This document shows, piece by piece, positions 2,802 to 62,309 of a DNA stretch of 64,000 bases (position 1 is its first letter; every line of letters starts with the position of its first letter). Location of the stretch: positions 186,001-250,000 of the forward strand of contig NZ_CP111042.1 in NCBI RefSeq assembly GCF_026248685.1, written 5' to 3'. A model generated the notes under the pieces. It was not told the origin of the DNA, did not search any database, and worked only from the letters and a program-made list of their open reading frames with translations. A program made the position numbers and the translations under genes. The stretch comes from Haladaptatus caseinilyticus. GTDB lineage: Archaea; Halobacteriota; Halobacteria; Halobacteriales; Haladaptataceae.

Positions 2802-3841
2802 GCCTCGTCGATCGGCTCCCACATGATGACTCAGGTCGGGCATTCTTCATCGGAGGTGTCTGTATTCTTATAGCGTTGCTGTTCGCGCTCACACCGCTAC
2901 GTACGACGCTTCCTGACGGATTTAATGTCTTTTTCGAAGTCGGAATTCTGTTCACGATATATGCCATGTTGGTTCTGGGACTGAATCTCCAATACGGCTA
3001 CACCGGTCTCGTCAACTTCGGTCACGTGGTCTTTTTCGCGGTCGGTGCATACTCAGTAGCGATGCTGTCGGCCCAGGATACCTTCGCTGGGATTGGATTA
3101 GGCTACCCGTGGCCCGTGGCACTGATTGTTGGGATAGTCGTCGCGGCACTGCTCGGTACGATCGTTGGTGCTACATCTCTTCGTCTGCGTGATGACTTTC
3201 TGGCTATCGCTACCCTTGCCACTGCCGAGATATTCCACACGTTGTTTGTCAACTTCCGACACATATTCGGAGGAAACGTCGGCATTCTGGGTGTGCCACA
3301 ACCAGTGAAAGATATCGCTAGCGGCACTGATACCACATTACTCGCAACCATACTGCTTTCCGGTGGTATTACAATATTGACATTTGCAATCATTACACGG
3401 TTGACCGACGCACCGTATGGCCGGGTGTTGCGAGCTATTCGCGCAGACGAGTTGGTTACACGGTCGGTCGGAAAGCCGACGTTCACCTATAAGATGCAAG
3501 CGTTTGTCTATGGTGCCGCACTTGCTGGCCTTGCTGGCGGCCTGTTTGCGCTTTACAACGGTGCGGTTGCTCCAGGTTACTTTACCATTCAGGTCACTGT
3601 GACCGTGTGGATCGGAATGTTACTTGGAGGCGCTGCCAACAACCGTGCGGTCTTGGGAGGGCTCGCGGTTATCATGGGTCTTCGGCTGTTGTCGCGATTT
3701 GCACTTGATGTTGCACCAGTATCGGCTGATGCGTTTGCATCTATCCGACTCATCCTCATTGGAGTCATCTTGATACTGGTCATTCGCTATCGGCCAGCCG
3801 GAATTTGGGGAGATGCGAAAGAGCTGGGGGTCGATTCATGA
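2798..3841 (+). CDS. livM: Branched-chain amino acid-type ABC permease LivM
   Basis: The second permease subunit, 347 residues with a hydrophobic N-terminal extension and about nine membrane segments. The motif LNLQYGYTGLVNFGHVVFF is the LivM signature, and the coupling region near DAPYGRVLRAIRADE fits the permease loop that contacts the ATPases. It starts at GTG 2798, overlapping the livH stop, and overlaps livG by ATGA at 3838-3841. Nothing in it looks damaged. Confidence 0.92.
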   Translation: MSLVDRLPHDDSGRAFFIGGVCILIALLFALTPLRTTLPDGFNVFFEVGILFTIYAMLVLGLNLQYGYTGLVNFGHVVFFAVGAYSVAMLSAQDTFAGIGLGYPWPVALIVGIVVAALLGTIVGATSLRLRDDFLAIATLATAEIFHTLFVNFRHIFGGNVGILGVPQPVKDIASGTDTTLLATILLSGGITILTFAIITRLTDAPYGRVLRAIRADELVTRSVGKPTFTYKMQAFVYGAALAGLAGGLFALYNGAVAPGYFTIQVTVTVWIGMLLGGAANNRAVLGGLAVIMGLRLLSRFALDVAPVSADAFASIRLILIGVILILVIRYRPAGIWGDAKELGVDS

Positions 3842-42361: not shown

Positions 42362-42779
42362 GTAGACGACGAGTCGCCAGCTCTTCGAGACAGTCCAGCG
42401 CTCGGAACAGAACACCGGACTGGTCAACTTCCGTGAAAAGCGTGCCGAGAGTCAGCAAGTCGAAGACAAGTACCTCGACGTGCTTGAGCACGCGAAGAAC
42501 GTTGCCAAGACGAACGACGTGATGGTTACACGTTTGGGCTATCGCGAAGTGGCGACGCACTACGGCTGTGCATACAAGAACGATGGTTATCGCGTCATGG
42601 AGGAGATGGCCGAACGCGTGCCCGGTGTGACGTACAAGGAATCTCGAACGCTGTGTGTAGACGACGCAATGGGCGTCGGTGGACAACACATCGAGATCAC
42701 GTTCGCCCATCCTGACCTCGCCGGGTGGATGCGAGCTCACGAAGCCAACGCGGGAGGGAACGGAGGGCGCGGATTATAG
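42362..42779 (+). pseudogene. Truncated Rep-like plasmid gene
   Basis: The frame opens after a stop at about 42360 and reads LFETVQRSEQNTGLVNFREK, YLDVLEHAKNVAKTNDVMVT, RLGYREVATHYGCAYKNDGY and ends RAHEANAGGNGGRGL at 42779. A helical stretch followed by a winged helix (GYREVATHYG...RVMEEMAE) resembles the C-terminal half of the protein at 57892. The N-terminal part is missing. It is followed immediately by an inverted-repeat and hairpin array that parallels the one after 58782. A GTG at 42480 could start a short protein. Confidence 0.6.
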
Positions 42780-42967
42780 CGTTGTAATCACGGGGGTTCG
42801 ACGAACCCCCGCTCGAACCACACCACATGAGGTTCACACCGCGTTGCCGGTGACACATGGTGGTACTAGTGCGCTAGTTACAGTGGAGTGCGTCTTTTTC
42901 TGCGTCATTTTCTGCGAAACGGAGAGGATCGCGAACGCGATCCCCCCTCTATTACAACGGTGTAATC
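42772..42967. repeat. Inverted-repeat and hairpin array after the truncated Rep-like gene
   Basis: Two arms, GATTATAGCGTTGTAAT (42772-42788) and ATTACAACGGTGTAATC (42951-42967), form an inverted repeat with two mismatches in 17. Between them are a hairpin CGGGGGTTCG/CGAACCCCCG (42791-42811) and the palindrome GGATCGCGAACGCGATCC (42926-42943). The layout matches that at 58782-59029, where arms and hairpin have different sequence. An origin of replication of a plasmid is a reasonable reading. Confidence 0.55.
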
Positions 42968-43204
42968 GGCTGCTCTTACTTGCGACAGCCGAGGACGGCT
43001 TGATTGAGAATGTGCCGAAGTGTTCCGAGCTGACGAGCCAACGGTTTAACATCACCCACCAGTCATCTGTTAGAAATGGTGTGCCAGATATAGAGGATGT
43101 ATTCAGCAATCTTGGCCCCCTCAATTCATGATCTACAAAGTATTATTTGTCGTATATAGTATTATTATCAAGGATTATCTAAAAGGCATTCATCTGCGAA
43201 ATCG

Positions 43205-53192: not shown

Positions 53193-54419
53193 ATGCGGCG
53201 GTTCACCCGAAAACAAAATATTTTCACAAACAAGGACGCGCTCAACGAGTCCTATCAACCCGAGCGTATCCAAGAACGTGATGAAGAGATCGACGCGTAC
53301 ATGAACGCTCTTCAGCCCGTCGTCGACGGATGGGAGCCAAACAATATTTTCGTATACGGGAATACAGGAGTTGGGAAAACTGCAGTCACCGATTTCCTCC
53401 TTGATAGACTCTGTGAAGACATCGGACAATACGACGACATCGACCTCCATGTACTCTCTCTCAACTGTAAAACGCTCAACTCATCCTATCAAGTTGCTAT
53501 CGAACTGGTGAACGAACTCCGACCTGAGGGGGCCGAAATCAGTTCGACAGGATATCCACAGCAAACGATCTTTAAAAAACTCTACACTGAACTCGACAAG
53601 CTTGGTGGAACCGTGCTCATCGTCCTTGACGAGATCGACTCCATCGGCACTCGTGACGAGCTTCTCTATGAACTCCCTCGTGCGCGATCAAATGACAAGC
53701 TTACTGAGACGAAAGTCGGTTTGATTGGTGTGAGCAATGATTTCAAGTTTCGAGATCGGCTCGATCCTCGTGTCCAAGACACACTCTGTGAACGGGAACT
53801 TCATTTCCCACCATATGACGCGCCTGAACTCCAGAATATTCTCGAGTCTCGCGTCGATGTTGCACTTGCAGAAGGATCTCTCGAAGATAGCGTCCCACGC
53901 CTCTGTGCTGCGCTTGCTGCCAAGGATAGTGGTAGTGCTCGTCAAGCACTCGACTTGCTTCGACTTGCGGGAGAGCATGCTGAAAACAGCGATGATGACC
54001 TCATTACGGAATCACATGTCGAGGCGGCAAAGGAGATGCTTGAACAGGAGCGTGTTGAAGAAGGGATGCGAGAATTAACCGTCAATGGCCATTTCGCCCT
54101 TCTAGCAGTCGTCTCAATGGCTGCAAAAGGTGATACACCGTGTCGTACCCGGCGTATCTATGAGGAGTATACTGACCTTTGCCAGTTCGCAGGTGTCGAT
54201 CCGCTCGCTCAGCGGTCCGTACATAATCACCTATCTGATCTTAGGATGCTTGGTATTTTGACTGCCGAGGAGAATCGGAGTGGCTCCCGTGGAAATTACT
54301 ACAGCTATGCACTAGATGTTCCCTTCTTTAGTGCGCTGTCAGCACTATCTGATGTGCTGTCTTTAGAGGATACGTTGACAAAGCTAGAAACGCTCGCACA
54401 GCAAAATGATGTTCTGTAG
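53193..54419 (+). CDS. orc1/cdc6: Orc1/Cdc6 replication initiator
   Basis: A 408-residue AAA+ initiator that binds origin iterons and loads the helicase. Walker A GNTGVGKTA is at residues 56-64, Walker B VLIVLDEID at 141-149, a sensor-like region in LIGVSNDFKFRDRLDPRVQD, and a C-terminal winged helix near HFALLAVVSMAAKGDTPCRT. Length is typical. The origin lies just upstream. It probably governs this replicon (plasmid or secondary origin). Confidence 0.93.
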   Translation: MRRFTRKQNIFTNKDALNESYQPERIQERDEEIDAYMNALQPVVDGWEPNNIFVYGNTGVGKTAVTDFLLDRLCEDIGQYDDIDLHVLSLNCKTLNSSYQVAIELVNELRPEGAEISSTGYPQQTIFKKLYTELDKLGGTVLIVLDEIDSIGTRDELLYELPRARSNDKLTETKVGLIGVSNDFKFRDRLDPRVQDTLCERELHFPPYDAPELQNILESRVDVALAEGSLEDSVPRLCAALAAKDSGSARQALDLLRLAGEHAENSDDDLITESHVEAAKEMLEQERVEEGMRELTVNGHFALLAVVSMAAKGDTPCRTRRIYEEYTDLCQFAGVDPLAQRSVHNHLSDLRMLGILTAEENRSGSRGNYYSYALDVPFFSALSALSDVLSLEDTLTKLETLAQQNDVL

Positions 54420-55184: not shown

Positions 55185-55740
55185 AAATGACTATGGGATG
55201 GGCTATGGCTAAAACTATAGGATTTTCCATAGGCAAGTGAGGCTCATTTCGCTGGAAAAGAAACTTATCTAGTTAACAAAATCCGTCTTTTCCGTACAAT
55301 CACGAAATCGTTTGTGTTGATTAGACAGGATCACTGTTAGTGTAATATACTAACTAGCGGTTCTCTCGTTGACCTTCGATCGGCTTTCTTCCTAGCTGAG
55401 CGGTCACCAATTGGCTATAAATATACTATTGTTTCAGCAATAGTTCTCTCTATTGCTATTTCTATGGTATATTCTATAACTGAGTAAGCATGCGTTCCTA
55501 CGGTTAATTCTATTGGGTATCCTAAAGAAACATTTAGATAATATTTCTCTCGATGGCTATAGGATATCCTATATCCAATATTGGACTACTATCTTTTCTA
55601 AACGACGACCTCTATTTCTCGTCACCCGAATGTCGTCCGACTACAGCATTCTCTATATCTATGTCTAATGTGATTTCTAAACCTCTTCCAATATTGTTAG
55701 TTATAGCAAATTATATGGGGATTCCTATAGGCGTCGTGCA
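55185..55740. repeat. AT-rich field of CTATAGG-type motifs, left of the par operon
   Basis: An AT-rich stretch holds many related short motifs: ACTATGGGA, GCTATGGCT, ACTATAGGA, CCATAGGC near 55190-55245; TCTATGGTA near 55462; GGCTATAGGATATCCTATAT near 55555; TCCTATAGGCG near 55723. Such a field next to parA-type genes may be the centromere or operator of the partition system. No gene is seen in it except the very end of the parB-like gene. Confidence 0.55.
55336..55354. promoter_or_regulatory. 19-bp palindrome, site 5 (GTTAGTGTAATATACTAAC)
   Basis: One of six copies; inside the AT-rich field, no gene begins nearby. Confidence 0.45.
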
Positions 55741-56114
55741 GACTTTGCTTTGGCGTCTAACCACGTTTCAACAACATCTGGTGCCGCTCGTTGAAGTCCC
55801 GCTCGAATCGCCAGTCGGAGCACTTCACTTCGATCAACCGCTTCCTCATTAACCTCCCGTCCAAGTTCTTCTTGCAAACGTGACCCGACGTCCTGTTGAA
55901 TCTGGGGATTCGATTCGAGTGCAGAAATAAGGGCAGCTGTATCGCCATCCCAAAACGAGACTGTCTTCTGCCGGTCTCCATTCTCTATCTCAGAGAGTAC
56001 CGCGAGAATATCTTCACGGAACGATTTAGATTCCGATTGTTTCGCTGATTCTTGATTCCGATTCCCGACCTGCGTTTTTTGCTTGAGTTCCTCAAGGTCG
56101 ACGTCTTCGCTCAT
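55725..56114 (-). CDS. Partner protein of ParA (DNA-binding, centromere candidate)
   Basis: A 129-residue acidic protein overlapping the end of parA by ATGA. The N-terminus is rich in Lys and Glu; the C-terminus (VDRSEVLRLAIRAGLQRAAP, DVVETWLDAKAKS) has a ribbon-helix-helix-like S-E-V-L-R-x-A-I-R-x-G-L pattern. In such operons the small downstream protein binds centromere repeats. ATG 56114. The start codon region and operon position support this role; identity with a named family is not claimed. Confidence 0.7.
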   Translation of the reverse strand: MSEDVDLEELKQKTQVGNRNQESAKQSESKSFREDILAVLSEIENGDRQKTVSFWDGDTAALISALESNPQIQQDVGSRLQEELGREVNEEAVDRSEVLRLAIRAGLQRAAPDVVETWLDAKAKSARRL

Positions 56115-56956
56115 TGTTGTTCCTCCAGTCGGGTGACGAGTTCAGCTGCATTTTCCCGATACGCTTCTAACGCACGAGTGGCCGTCTTCGATGGCTCTTC
56201 AAGTGCAAACGCTGTTTGTCCGTTTATTTGCGCATTCACAATATCCTGCGAATAATTGACCTGCCGAGGAGCAATCGCATCCGGATAGTTCTCGGTGAAC
56301 GTCTGCTTGAAATGCTTACCAGCATTCGTACGTTCATCAAGTTCGTTGAGGATGAGCATCGTCAGCTGGATGTCTGTATCTTGCTCTTCTCGGATCTCGT
56401 GTAGATCATCGCGTAATTGTGCTGCTTGGCCTTCTTCGAACGGCCCTGCTTTCACAGGTGCGAGTACGTTCTTTGCGGCCCACAGTCCATTGTAGGTGAT
56501 ATTGGATGTGCTTCCTGGCAAATCGAGAAGCACGATATCATACTGGCCGTCGATGAACTCGGTAAGGAACGTGTTGAGGCGAGAGTATCGTTCTTGCGTG
56601 TCATCGATGTTTCCGAGCATACTATCGAGTCCATCAAGCCCCTCGTGCGCTGGAATCAGATCAGGACCCTCTCCAGTTTCGAGGACGAGCTGATCAACAG
56701 CGTCGTCGATTTGCTTGGCGATGATATCCCATTCATCTTGGAACACGGTCGTGATGTTCGGCCAATTCTCCTCGTTCGCTTGTACCTCTTCCCAAAGGCC
56801 AAAGTGCTTCGCAAGGTCGCCCTGTTTCCCGGCGAGATCGATAAGGAGGACGTCAAGCCCATCCTCCTCAAGAGCAACACCAAAATGAGCGACAGTAGTG
56901 GTCTTTCCGACTCCACCTTTGTCAAGGAACGACGCAATACGCATTGTATTCGGCAT
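56111..56956 (-). CDS. parA: ParA-family partition ATPase
   Basis: A 281-residue ATPase. The deviant Walker A KGGVGKTTT is at residues 13-21, with VLLIDLAGKQGDLAKHFGL and YDIVLLDLPGSTSNITYNGL as further motifs of the ParA/Soj group. It segregates plasmid copies before division with its partner and a centromere. Start ATG 56956, or 56944. The start lies next to a TATGCCTAT/ATAGGCATA inverted repeat, a likely operator. The partner gene overlaps the 3' end. Confidence 0.9.
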   Translation of the reverse strand: MPNTMRIASFLDKGGVGKTTTVAHFGVALEEDGLDVLLIDLAGKQGDLAKHFGLWEEVQANEENWPNITTVFQDEWDIIAKQIDDAVDQLVLETGEGPDLIPAHEGLDGLDSMLGNIDDTQERYSRLNTFLTEFIDGQYDIVLLDLPGSTSNITYNGLWAAKNVLAPVKAGPFEEGQAAQLRDDLHEIREEQDTDIQLTMLILNELDERTNAGKHFKQTFTENYPDAIAPRQVNYSQDIVNAQINGQTAFALEEPSKTATRALEAYRENAAELVTRLEEQQ

Positions 56957-57891: not shown

Positions 57892-58782
57892 ATGTTGATC
57901 GGACTTTCGTCGGACGATGGTGACGAAAACACGGTCTCGAACGACGACGCTGCCACAGCAATTAGAGCGGATGTAGCAGTGCCAAACACGTCGAGTACGG
58001 CCACGACCGAGCAGGAGGCCCCAAGTCGGGAAGCGATGTGGACACAGATCCAGCGACAGACCGAGCAAATCGAATCGCTCCACCAGCGCGTCAAGACGCT
58101 GGAACAAGAACGTGAGAACACTGAGAAAGATCTAGCCGATGCACAGGATCGTGCCAACCGCTCCGAGGCCGTGGCCGACGCCGCAATAGTCCACACCCGA
58201 CAATTATGGATGCTCTCTGACGCGCTCGAAACACGGGTCGACAACGCGACAACGCGCGTGTTCGAGAACCACGAACAACGGCTACAGGACATCGAACACG
58301 ACCGCGTGGATGTAAGCGACCTCATCAACTCGGATGTAACCCACGACCTCGAAATTCAACGGAAGACGGCTGCACGACTAGCCGCTGAGCGGGAAGACAC
58401 AGACTCGCCTCTGTCGGGGAACAAGCATCGGATGACGTTCTTATGGCGCGAGTTCATCGAATCAGCGCAGAAGACGAAAGGCGGGAAACTGGAACTCGAT
58501 TCAGCGGCATGCCGTCGTCGGTTAGAAAACCGCGCGGGGATCCACAATCCAAACACGAACACGGTGCAGCGGTCGATGAAAATGCTGGCGCGTCACACGC
58601 GTCAGGATGGTAGTGTGAATGGCTCGGGCAAGTGGGACGACCAAGATAACCTTGTTCGCTTCGACCCCGGCGAGCGGGGCGGACAGGCTGCCCGGTTAGT
58701 TGCTGATGCAGACGAGTTCCGTGAATTCGCTGCCGAACAATCACGGTCTGCGCTCGAACAGGGAGGTGAGGAAGCGCGATAA
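57892..58782 (+). CDS. Rep-like plasmid protein (coiled coil and winged helix)
   Basis: A 296-residue acidic protein. Residues 45-95 form a coiled coil (MWTQIQRQTEQIESLHQRVK, TLEQERENTEKDLADAQDRA), and a second helical region follows; residues about 175-255 (MTFLWREFIESAQKTKGGKL, DSAACRRRLENRAGIHNPNT, NTVQRSMKMLARHTRQDG) look like a winged helix. A GGAGGTGA ribosome site precedes ATG 57892. Directly after its stop comes an inverted-repeat and hairpin array that may be its binding site, as in iteron or dso-type plasmid origins. Role as a replication initiator is an inference. Confidence 0.6.
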   Translation: MLIGLSSDDGDENTVSNDDAATAIRADVAVPNTSSTATTEQEAPSREAMWTQIQRQTEQIESLHQRVKTLEQERENTEKDLADAQDRANRSEAVADAAIVHTRQLWMLSDALETRVDNATTRVFENHEQRLQDIEHDRVDVSDLINSDVTHDLEIQRKTAARLAAEREDTDSPLSGNKHRMTFLWREFIESAQKTKGGKLELDSAACRRRLENRAGIHNPNTNTVQRSMKMLARHTRQDGSVNGSGKWDDQDNLVRFDPGERGGQAARLVADADEFREFAAEQSRSALEQGGEEAR

Positions 58783-59029
58783 TTACACTGTCGTAATCAT
58801 CCCTCGAACACGGGGCGTAATCTTGCTCCGAAGCGTTTCCAGAGTACTCCTCCACAGATGACAAGGGGGACGCAATTTGCGTCCCCCTTCGAAGCGGAAC
58901 GAACGGTCGGCTACTGTGGGGTGTAATTACTCTCGCTTTTCTCACCGGGATTGCGAGGTAGAAGAAAGCGAGAGAACAGGCATGACGTGATTACGGTTCA
59001 TGTTCGGGCGTTAATTACGACAGTGTAAT
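58782..59029. repeat. Inverted-repeat and hairpin array after the Rep-like gene
   Basis: Perfect inverted arms ATTACACTGTCGTAAT (58782-58797) and ATTACGACAGTGTAAT (59014-59029), 216 bases apart. Between them lie a 13-base-stem hairpin AAGGGGGACGCAA/TTGCGTCCCCCTT (58863-58889), a second inverted pair TCTCGCTTTTCT/AGAAAGCGAGA near 58931-58973 and extra GTAATTA/GATTACG half sites. The first arm overlaps the stop region of the Rep-like gene. No gene is seen between. The rest of the stretch to 59230 is also empty. Confidence 0.75.
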
Positions 59030-61970: not shown

Positions 61971-62309
61971 TCAATCTGCATTCATTTCTGATCGACCGAA
62001 CATCCATGACTTTGCACGTGTGAGTAGTGACGTCTCCTTACTATCTTCGACCGCCGGGACCGGATCGGCTTCGAGTTGTCGCGTCAGCCGGTTATTTTCT
62101 TCGTGCAATCGCTCAATTTCGCCTTCAAGCCGGGAGAGAGCCTCTCTCAGGAAAGAGGATTCAACATCTGAATCCAGTGTTGAATGCGTTGAATCACGAT
62201 TACGGATGATTTGACGGACGTATTCACTTCTGGATTCATCTCGTTTCTTCGCTTCTTTCTCCAACTCCTCTATTTCGTCTCTCTCAAGCCGGACGGTCAT
62301 ATTCTTCAT
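61971..62309 (-). CDS. Ribbon-helix-helix (CopG/Arc-type) protein with coiled coil
   Basis: A 112-residue protein. Residues 3-35 (NMTVRLERDEIEELEKEAKK, SRSEYVRQIIRNR) are a classic ribbon-helix-helix DNA-binding domain; residues 50-85 (FLREALSRLEGEIERLHEEN, NRLTRQLE) form a coiled coil for dimer or partner contact. Such proteins act as regulators or plasmid copy/partition factors. ATG 62309 or 62300. Palindrome site 6 lies 80 bases upstream of its start. Confidence 0.82.
   Translation of the reverse strand: MKNMTVRLERDEIEELEKEAKKRDESRSEYVRQIIRNRDSTHSTLDSDVESSFLREALSRLEGEIERLHEENNRLTRQLEADPVPAVEDSKETSLLTRAKSWMFGRSEMNAD

What the first reader, a model, noticed from the sequence alone, without database searches (positions are those of the whole stretch)
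42362..42967. Second, truncated copy of the Rep-like gene and array architecture
The same order recurs 15 kb away: a helical plus winged-helix gene end, an arm overlapping its stop codon, a GGGGG-type hairpin, and a second inverted arm about 180 bases on. Arm and hairpin sequences differ from those at 58782, so the layout is conserved while the sequence has diverged, which argues for function.
Basis: partly seen in the sequence, partly recalled or inferred. Interest (0 to 1): 0.75.

Follow-up and report, generated by a model that had tools for sequence, protein, structure and literature searches.

The report
Relic of a plasmid maintenance module
The stretch is a broken leftover of a small module, a DNA-binding protein gene followed by its own paired recognition sites, that probably serves haloarchaeal plasmids as a replication start point; intact versions with different site sequences sit elsewhere in the genome and on plasmids as small as 4.5 kb.

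Summary
The layout is real: a 137-codon gene end without a start, arm 42772-42788 over the stop, hairpin 42791-42811, second arm 42951-42967. It is not a second copy of the gene at 57892: the two share no sequence. It is a relic of another family ("A"), found in 9 of 9 genomes of its genus and 0 of 19 others in the family, mostly 5'-truncated. Intact A encodes a coiled coil plus a winged helix. Shared N-termini are joined to at least seven different C-termini, most followed by their own inverted arms. Relatives in other haloarchaeal genera repeat this with other arm sequences; overall 22 of 37 tested genes beat shuffles. Relatives sit on small plasmids, one of 4,491 bp with no recognisable replication gene. 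The own plasmids C3, C4 and C7, scanned whole, each keep one intact module of a different type. Best reading: relic of a replication or maintenance module whose downstream array is the origin or recognition site. Replication is inferred, not shown; partition remains a rival.

The parts
42366..42779 (+). 5'-truncated 3' end of a family-A coiled-coil/winged-helix gene (137 codons and stop; preceded by TAG 42363-42365)
   Evidence: 16 matches in the own genome; intact homologue at C4 (L082:10239-11045)
42772..42788 (+). arm 1, GATTATAGCGTTGTAAT, imperfect palindrome overlapping the stop codon
42791..42811 (+). hairpin 1 (CGGGGGTTCG / CGAACCCCCG)
42879..42889 (+). shared core, TACAGTGGAGT here (TAC[TGC]NNNN[AG]GT in most families; this copy has A at the fourth base)
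   Evidence: for the letters; for the motif in other members
42889..42912 (+). two tandem T-rich repeats TGCGTC(T/A)TTTTC; 1-3 copies in other members
42926..42943 (+). hairpin 2 (GGATCGCG AA CGCGATCC)
   Evidence: read; stem changes across members
42951..42967 (+). arm 2, ATTACAACGGTGTAATC; homology between many copies ends here
57892..58782 (+). intact family-B gene, 296 aa, coiled coil plus C-terminal DNA-binding module
   Evidence: model of low confidence, pLDDT 54
58782..59029 (+). B array: arms 58782-58797 and 59014-59029, hairpin 58863-58889, core TACTGTGGGGT 58912-58922
53193..54419 (+). orc1/cdc6 gene near the B module
   Evidence: Cdc6_C 3.2e-20, Cdc6_lid 1.8e-23
56111..56956 (-). 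ParA-family ATPase gene, followed by a 129-aa gene 55725-56114
   Evidence: AAA_31 3.5e-21
61971..62309 (-). ribbon-helix-helix plus coiled-coil gene of a kind that accompanies the relatives on small plasmids
   Evidence: RHH_1 1.3e-6; similar genes in L268-L271

Best explanation
The stretch is a relic of a plasmid module. [quoted passage not shown] I infer that a dimer of the protein binds each arm and that the array, with the shared core, is the plasmid's replication origin or an origin-proximal recognition site, much as the origins downstream of rep genes in pRN1 and SNJ2. The DNA-binding module and its array change together between types, so plasmids with different types could coexist. At 42362 only the last 137 codons and the array of an A-type module remain, on a plasmid whose intact module is type B (57892-59029). 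Shown: relic, layout, coupled change of arms and C-terminal module, presence on small plasmids. Inferred: binding, origin function, compatibility.
For: Relic: no start codon, 16 matches in the genome, one intact copy on C4; changes after truncation look unconstrained. Module: 113 non-contained A-type matches in the fetched loci, 63 of them keeping arm 2 (counted); N-termini shared between different C-termini, including the N2+A hybrid L074; 22 of 37 genes tested have an inverted arm pair reached by at most 1 of 100 shuffles, with different sequences in different types; core in 23 of 30 arrays against 3.1 expected, motif chosen after seeing most of them. Maintenance: relatives on plasmid records of 4,491, 17,645, 21,460, 23,727 and 29,796 bp; none of the 6 proteins of the 4,491-bp plasmid matches a replication family in Pfam, NCBIfam or PHROGs; type-B genes lie nearer to orc1/cdc6 than uniform placement on 5 replicons gives (657 of 100,000); exactly one intact module each on C3 (type C), C4 (A) and C7 (B), scanned whole; same-type pairs within a genome 2 against 7.1 expected (204 of 20,000 shuffles).
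Against: No initiator, helicase, primase or nuclease domain: the A model is only coiled coil plus winged helix and its structure matches are generic. The large plasmids carry orc1/cdc6 genes as well, and two of the small ones carry primase-like genes. On the 4,491-bp plasmid a 214-aa protein of unknown function is another candidate, the core was not found and the arm pair did not stand out. GC skew gives no consistent origin signal. On 8 C-like loci not looked at before (other genera), only 2 arm pairs and 2 cores passed. 15 of 37 genes did not pass. The type table is hand-made and has exceptions (two type-C modules in G008, a duplicated A-like gene in G005; two type-E genes in G003 were left out because they have no array).
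Confidence: 0.55

Rival explanations
1. Partition module: the protein is a centromere-binding protein and the array is the centromere, served by a ParA.
For: ParA operon next to the B module in the window and within about 2 kb in Halalkalicoccus plasmid 4, ParB-family gene nearby on Haloquadratum PL100; winged helix plus palindromic sites; pNOB8 centromere-binding protein among the structural matches, Z 6.2 (tied with many unrelated wHTH proteins).
Against: The ParA operon has its own conserved 129-130-aa partner also without this module beside it; in 20 neighbourhoods of relatives only L266 had a ParA hit with the one window ParA used as query; the six CDS of the 4,491-bp plasmid include no ParA.
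Confidence: 0.25
2. Mobile element: the array is the fixed end of a transposable or integrating element and the truncated copies are one-ended insertions.
For: Up to 27 matches per genome, 36 of 113 copies end within 12 bases of arm 2 (counted), left ends variable with a cluster at one point.
Against: No transposase or integrase family among the matches of the A operon beyond weak coiled-coil hits; right flanks fall into shared families and many copies share about 90 bp beyond arm 2; copies with the same left joint have different right ends, as expected from decay of inherited joints; target-site duplications were not tested formally.
Confidence: 0.1
3. Regulatory or structured RNA: the array is a transcription terminator or an RNA at the end of the operon.
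For: G-run hairpins directly after the stop codon; a consensus fold over 32 copies.
Against: No Rfam family above its gathering score; few compensatory changes, 6 of 42 pairs, covariation term -0.35; the arms are themselves near-palindromes far apart, as expected for protein sites.
Confidence: 0.07
4. Reservoir of silent cassettes: truncated C-terminal-plus-array copies are kept as donors for switching the DNA-binding specificity of the intact gene.
For: Several C-terminal types joined to shared N-termini; truncated copies mostly keep an open frame, 1 stop in 34 sequences of 73 codons.
Against: 9 of 49 copies have gaps and were left out of that count; private changes in truncated copies are mostly nonsynonymous, so no sign of upkeep after truncation.
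Confidence: 0.08

Closest known systems
Rep-Arvir / RepSNJ2 of betapleolipoviruses and archaeal plasmids (PMC13107129; abstract, found passages, sections 25 and 26 read)
   Same: Last gene of an operon, wHTH DNA-binding domain, origin directly downstream made of a variable inverted repeat and a conserved hairpin.
   Different: Rep-Arvir proteins carry an N-terminal DUF7845 endonuclease domain with a catalytic tyrosine; no DUF7845 match was seen here and the N-terminus is a coiled coil.
pRN1-type crenarchaeal plasmids (PMC4234260; found passages read)
   Same: Origin in the 166 bp after the replication gene; layout kept while sequence diverges; C-terminal winged helix in the replication protein.
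   Different: The pRN1 protein has primase and SF3 helicase domains and its origin is one large stem-loop; neither domain matched here.
Winged-helix iteron initiators (F RepE, pSK41 RepA; recalled, apart from weak Foldseek matches)
   Same: DNA-binding winged helix without an enzyme domain, acting on nearby repeats.
   Different: Long coiled coil; inverted arm pairs downstream of the gene instead of tandem iterons; matches not significant (E 0.2 or more).
pNOB8-type archaeal partition (AspA; recalled, plus 4rs8)
   Same: Winged helix and palindromic sites on plasmids.
   Different: No cognate ParA shown for the module; one structural match among many equal ones.
orc1/cdc6-adjacent haloarchaeal origins (PMC3528665; found passages read)
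   Same: Present on the same plasmids and close to type B.
   Different: No AAA+ domain in these proteins.

Membership tests
Rep-Arvir (RepSNJ2) | DUF7845 (PF25227) catalytic domain with catalytic tyrosine | tested here: not met
   Pfam-A scans of intact A, C, D, B2, B3 and A-like proteins and the 4,491-bp plasmid protein list no PF25227; the A model has no such domain
Rep-Arvir (RepSNJ2) | origin with inverted repeat and hairpin downstream of the gene | tested here: inconclusive
   layout met; origin function not testable here
pRN1-type replicon | primase/SF3 helicase replication protein | tested here: not met
   no such Pfam match in the proteins named above
Orc1/Cdc6 initiator and origin | AAA+ ATPase with Cdc6_C winged helix | tested here: not met
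   no AAA or Cdc6_C match for the module's proteins; the neighbouring gene 53193-54419 is the orc1/cdc6
Winged-helix iteron initiator | initiator fold related to RepE/RepA | tested here: inconclusive
   weak matches only
Winged-helix iteron initiator | supports autonomous replication with its sites | not testable with these tools
   needs a transformation assay
ParA-dependent partition | cognate ParA gene with the module | tested here: inconclusive
   present for window B and; 1 of 20 neighbourhoods, with a single ParA query; none among the six CDS of the 4,491-bp plasmid
Insertion sequence or transposon | transposase gene and defined ends | tested here: not met
   no transposase match in the A operon; ends not uniform

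The most novel reading that the evidence does not exclude
Haloarchaeal plasmids use an undescribed family of enzyme-free initiators in which the DNA-binding domain and the origin array are exchanged together as one specificity cassette under a shared coiled-coil head; switching the cassette changes plasmid compatibility and leaves array relics such as 42362-42967 behind.
Probability: 0.35. Interest if true: 0.8.

Novelty: new variant of a known kind. Interest (0 to 1): 0.6.

Why it matters
If the reading holds, a gene family that annotation calls 'hypothetical protein' would be a plasmid maintenance system spread over several haloarchaeal genera, with a natural set of matched proteins and sites (at least types A, B, B2, B3, B4, C, D, F and G). 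That would make it possible to type haloarchaeal plasmids, to build compatible vectors, and to test how a plasmid changes its origin specificity. The relic in the window is ordinary by itself; its value is that it points to the intact modules.

Tried and rejected
Second copy of the 57892 gene: rejected, no sequence match. Virus origin: no relatives in viral contigs and no tblastn match in the phage records; intact A does match PHROG 33117, function unknown. Known RNA: no Rfam match above its gathering score. GC skew as an origin signal: extremes lay near the array on C4 and on the 4,491-bp plasmid but not on the other 7 replicons examined, and amplitudes were mostly within block shuffles, so not used. 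Covariation inside the A array: little. B structure: pLDDT 54, not interpreted. Selection on truncated copies: pairwise omega near 0.06 looked like upkeep, but private changes suggest that the constraint predates truncation. Arm and core test on C-like genes not looked at before: 2 of 8 each, weak. Absence from the literature: the listings showed no such family; most subscription papers are not held. PMC11431627 was searched for five terms without a match; PMC5974055 was seen in passages only.

Full report
What is there. The frame 42366-42779 is open but has no start before GTG 42480 and follows TAG 42363-42365. Its end overlaps arm 1 (42772-42788), followed by a perfect 10-nt hairpin (42791-42811), two T-rich repeats (42889-42912), a second hairpin (42926-42943, read) and arm 2 (42951-42967). 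The arm pair and the longest stem are each reached by 2 of 200 dinucleotide shuffles; at 58780 by none of 200.

What it belongs to. The protein end has no significant Pfam family. Relatives (family A) occur in 9 of 9 genomes of the genus and 0 of 19 other genomes of the family. Named records show the genus to be Haladaptatus, and all 46 loci of the genome scan carry that name. In the own genome there are 16 matches. The intact gene is on contig C4, as the last of five genes in a 2.8-kb unit. Of 113 non-contained matches in the loci I had fetched, 63 keep arm 2 and 36 of these end within 12 bases of it (counted); most lack the 5' part. The first protein search used a C-terminal query, so these proportions are biased.

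Two proteins, one layout. The window's A relic and the B protein at 57892 share no sequence; the families share only the N-terminal coiled coil. Intact A is modelled as a long helix (18-116), a second helix and a winged helix (160-262), mean pLDDT 75; structure searches give generic wHTH proteins and no enzyme. Two kinds of N-terminus (N1, N2) are joined to C-terminal types A, B, B2, B4, C, D and F, with hybrids such as N2+A in L074; B3 and G have N-termini of their own, and type G lies behind the same small-gene operon. The operon that ends in N1 genes occurs in 9 of 9 genomes, 14 of 55 matches nearly full length.

Arms change with the C-terminus. For 37 genes (12 from the genus, 25 distant B-like ones; near-identical Haladaptatus copies L174, L192, L193, L021 and L023 left out) I scored the best ungapped inverted pair around the stop. 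22 of 37 were reached by at most 1 of 100 shuffles. Examples: B ATTACACTGTCGTAAT, B3 CTAAACACACTGTTGTTTTT, D GTCACACCCGTTGTGACCGG, L194 GCCGGCGTCACTGTGTTGTGACGCC, L201 CCGTCACGTTGTTGTGACGG. The 15 failures include the A-like chromosomal and plasmid genes, whose arms are shorter and imperfect by eye. The distant genes come from 17 genomes outside the genus; 19 of 341 genomes sampled from the class matched in all. A shared core, TAC[TGC]NNNN[AG]GT, lies in 23 of 30 arrays (3.1 expected; the motif was chosen after seeing most of them and one hit, L270, looks like chance). On 8 C-like loci not looked at before, arms passed in 2 and the core in 2.

Plasmid context. Relatives are on records of 4,491 bp (Halomicrobium urmianum), 17,645 and 21,460 bp (Haladaptatus), 23,727 bp (Halalkalicoccus) and 29,796 bp (Natrinema). 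The feature table of the 21,460-bp record repeats at about half its length, though the two halves are not letter-identical. None of the six proteins of the 4,491-bp plasmid matches a replication family, though a 214-aa protein remains unexplained and the arm pair is weak. Two of the others carry primase-like genes. A ribbon-helix-helix plus coiled-coil gene accompanies the module on four of these plasmids and is also in the window at 61971-62309.

One intact module per plasmid. C3, C4 and C7 were scanned whole with 13 type queries: the intact modules are C, A and B respectively, while C7 also has relics of A (three places, one being this finding), C, E, G and B and a gene-less B2-type array. 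C5 and C6 carry an A-like and a type-F module but were not scanned whole. Across 38 hand-typed array modules in 9 genomes, same-type pairs within a genome are 2, expected 7.1, 204 of 20,000 shuffles at or below. Type E was left out because it has no array; G003 has two of them. Type-B genes lie 4-10 kb from an orc1/cdc6 gene on 5 replicons, 657 of 100,000 random placements as close.

Why a relic. In 40 ungapped copies over 73 codons (9 gapped ones left out) median pairwise omega is 0.05-0.06 for both longer and truncated copies. Changes private to one sequence are 12 synonymous, 53 nonsynonymous and 1 stop in 34 truncated copies, against 4, 7 and 0 in 6 longer ones; neutrality predicts 2.85 nonsynonymous per synonymous. 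So the constraint seems to belong to the intact lineages, and truncated copies decay.

How it probably works. Inference: coiled-coil dimers bind the near-palindromic arms through the winged helix and load the replication machinery at the core. Precedents for an origin just after the rep gene with variable binding sites are pRN1 (PMC4234260) and SNJ2 (PMC13107129); both proteins have enzyme domains that are missing here. Partition is the main rival, because ParA genes lie near some modules. Nothing here tests replication directly.

Noticed in passing
window 43059-43100 and the right flanks of L101, L102, L129 and others: Many A relics share about 90 bp beyond arm 2 followed by CCAGTCATCTGTTAGGAATGGTGTGCCAGATATAGAGGAT-like sequence, perhaps the end of another repeat family.
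   Followed up: no
L278, L284, L285, L289, L290: In these loci the small-gene operon ends in a different gene of about 370-410 aa (type E) without the arm array.
   Followed up: partly
L274 (own contig C7 98370-100128): An operon whose last gene is deleted so that its N-terminal codons run straight into a B2-type array, joined at a short shared sequence.
   Followed up: partly
L248-L267, upstream of the B-like genes: A divergent small winged-helix gene lies upstream of many relatives, with small zinc-ribbon-like genes in some; it resembles repressors of haloarchaeal viruses (recalled).
   Followed up: partly
L288 after position 3443: Type-G array with arms around GGTGAACTCGTTCACC and the core GACTACTTGGGAGTA, about 290 bp after the stop, outside the 260-bp window.
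   Followed up: no
L270 (NZ_CP085343.1, 21,460 bp): The record looks like a tandem dimer of a 10.7-kb plasmid by its feature table, although the halves are not letter-identical.
   Followed up: partly
L087 and L118/L121 (G008:C4, 67 kb): At least four A relics within about 21 kb of one contig, a local pile-up of truncated modules.
   Followed up: no
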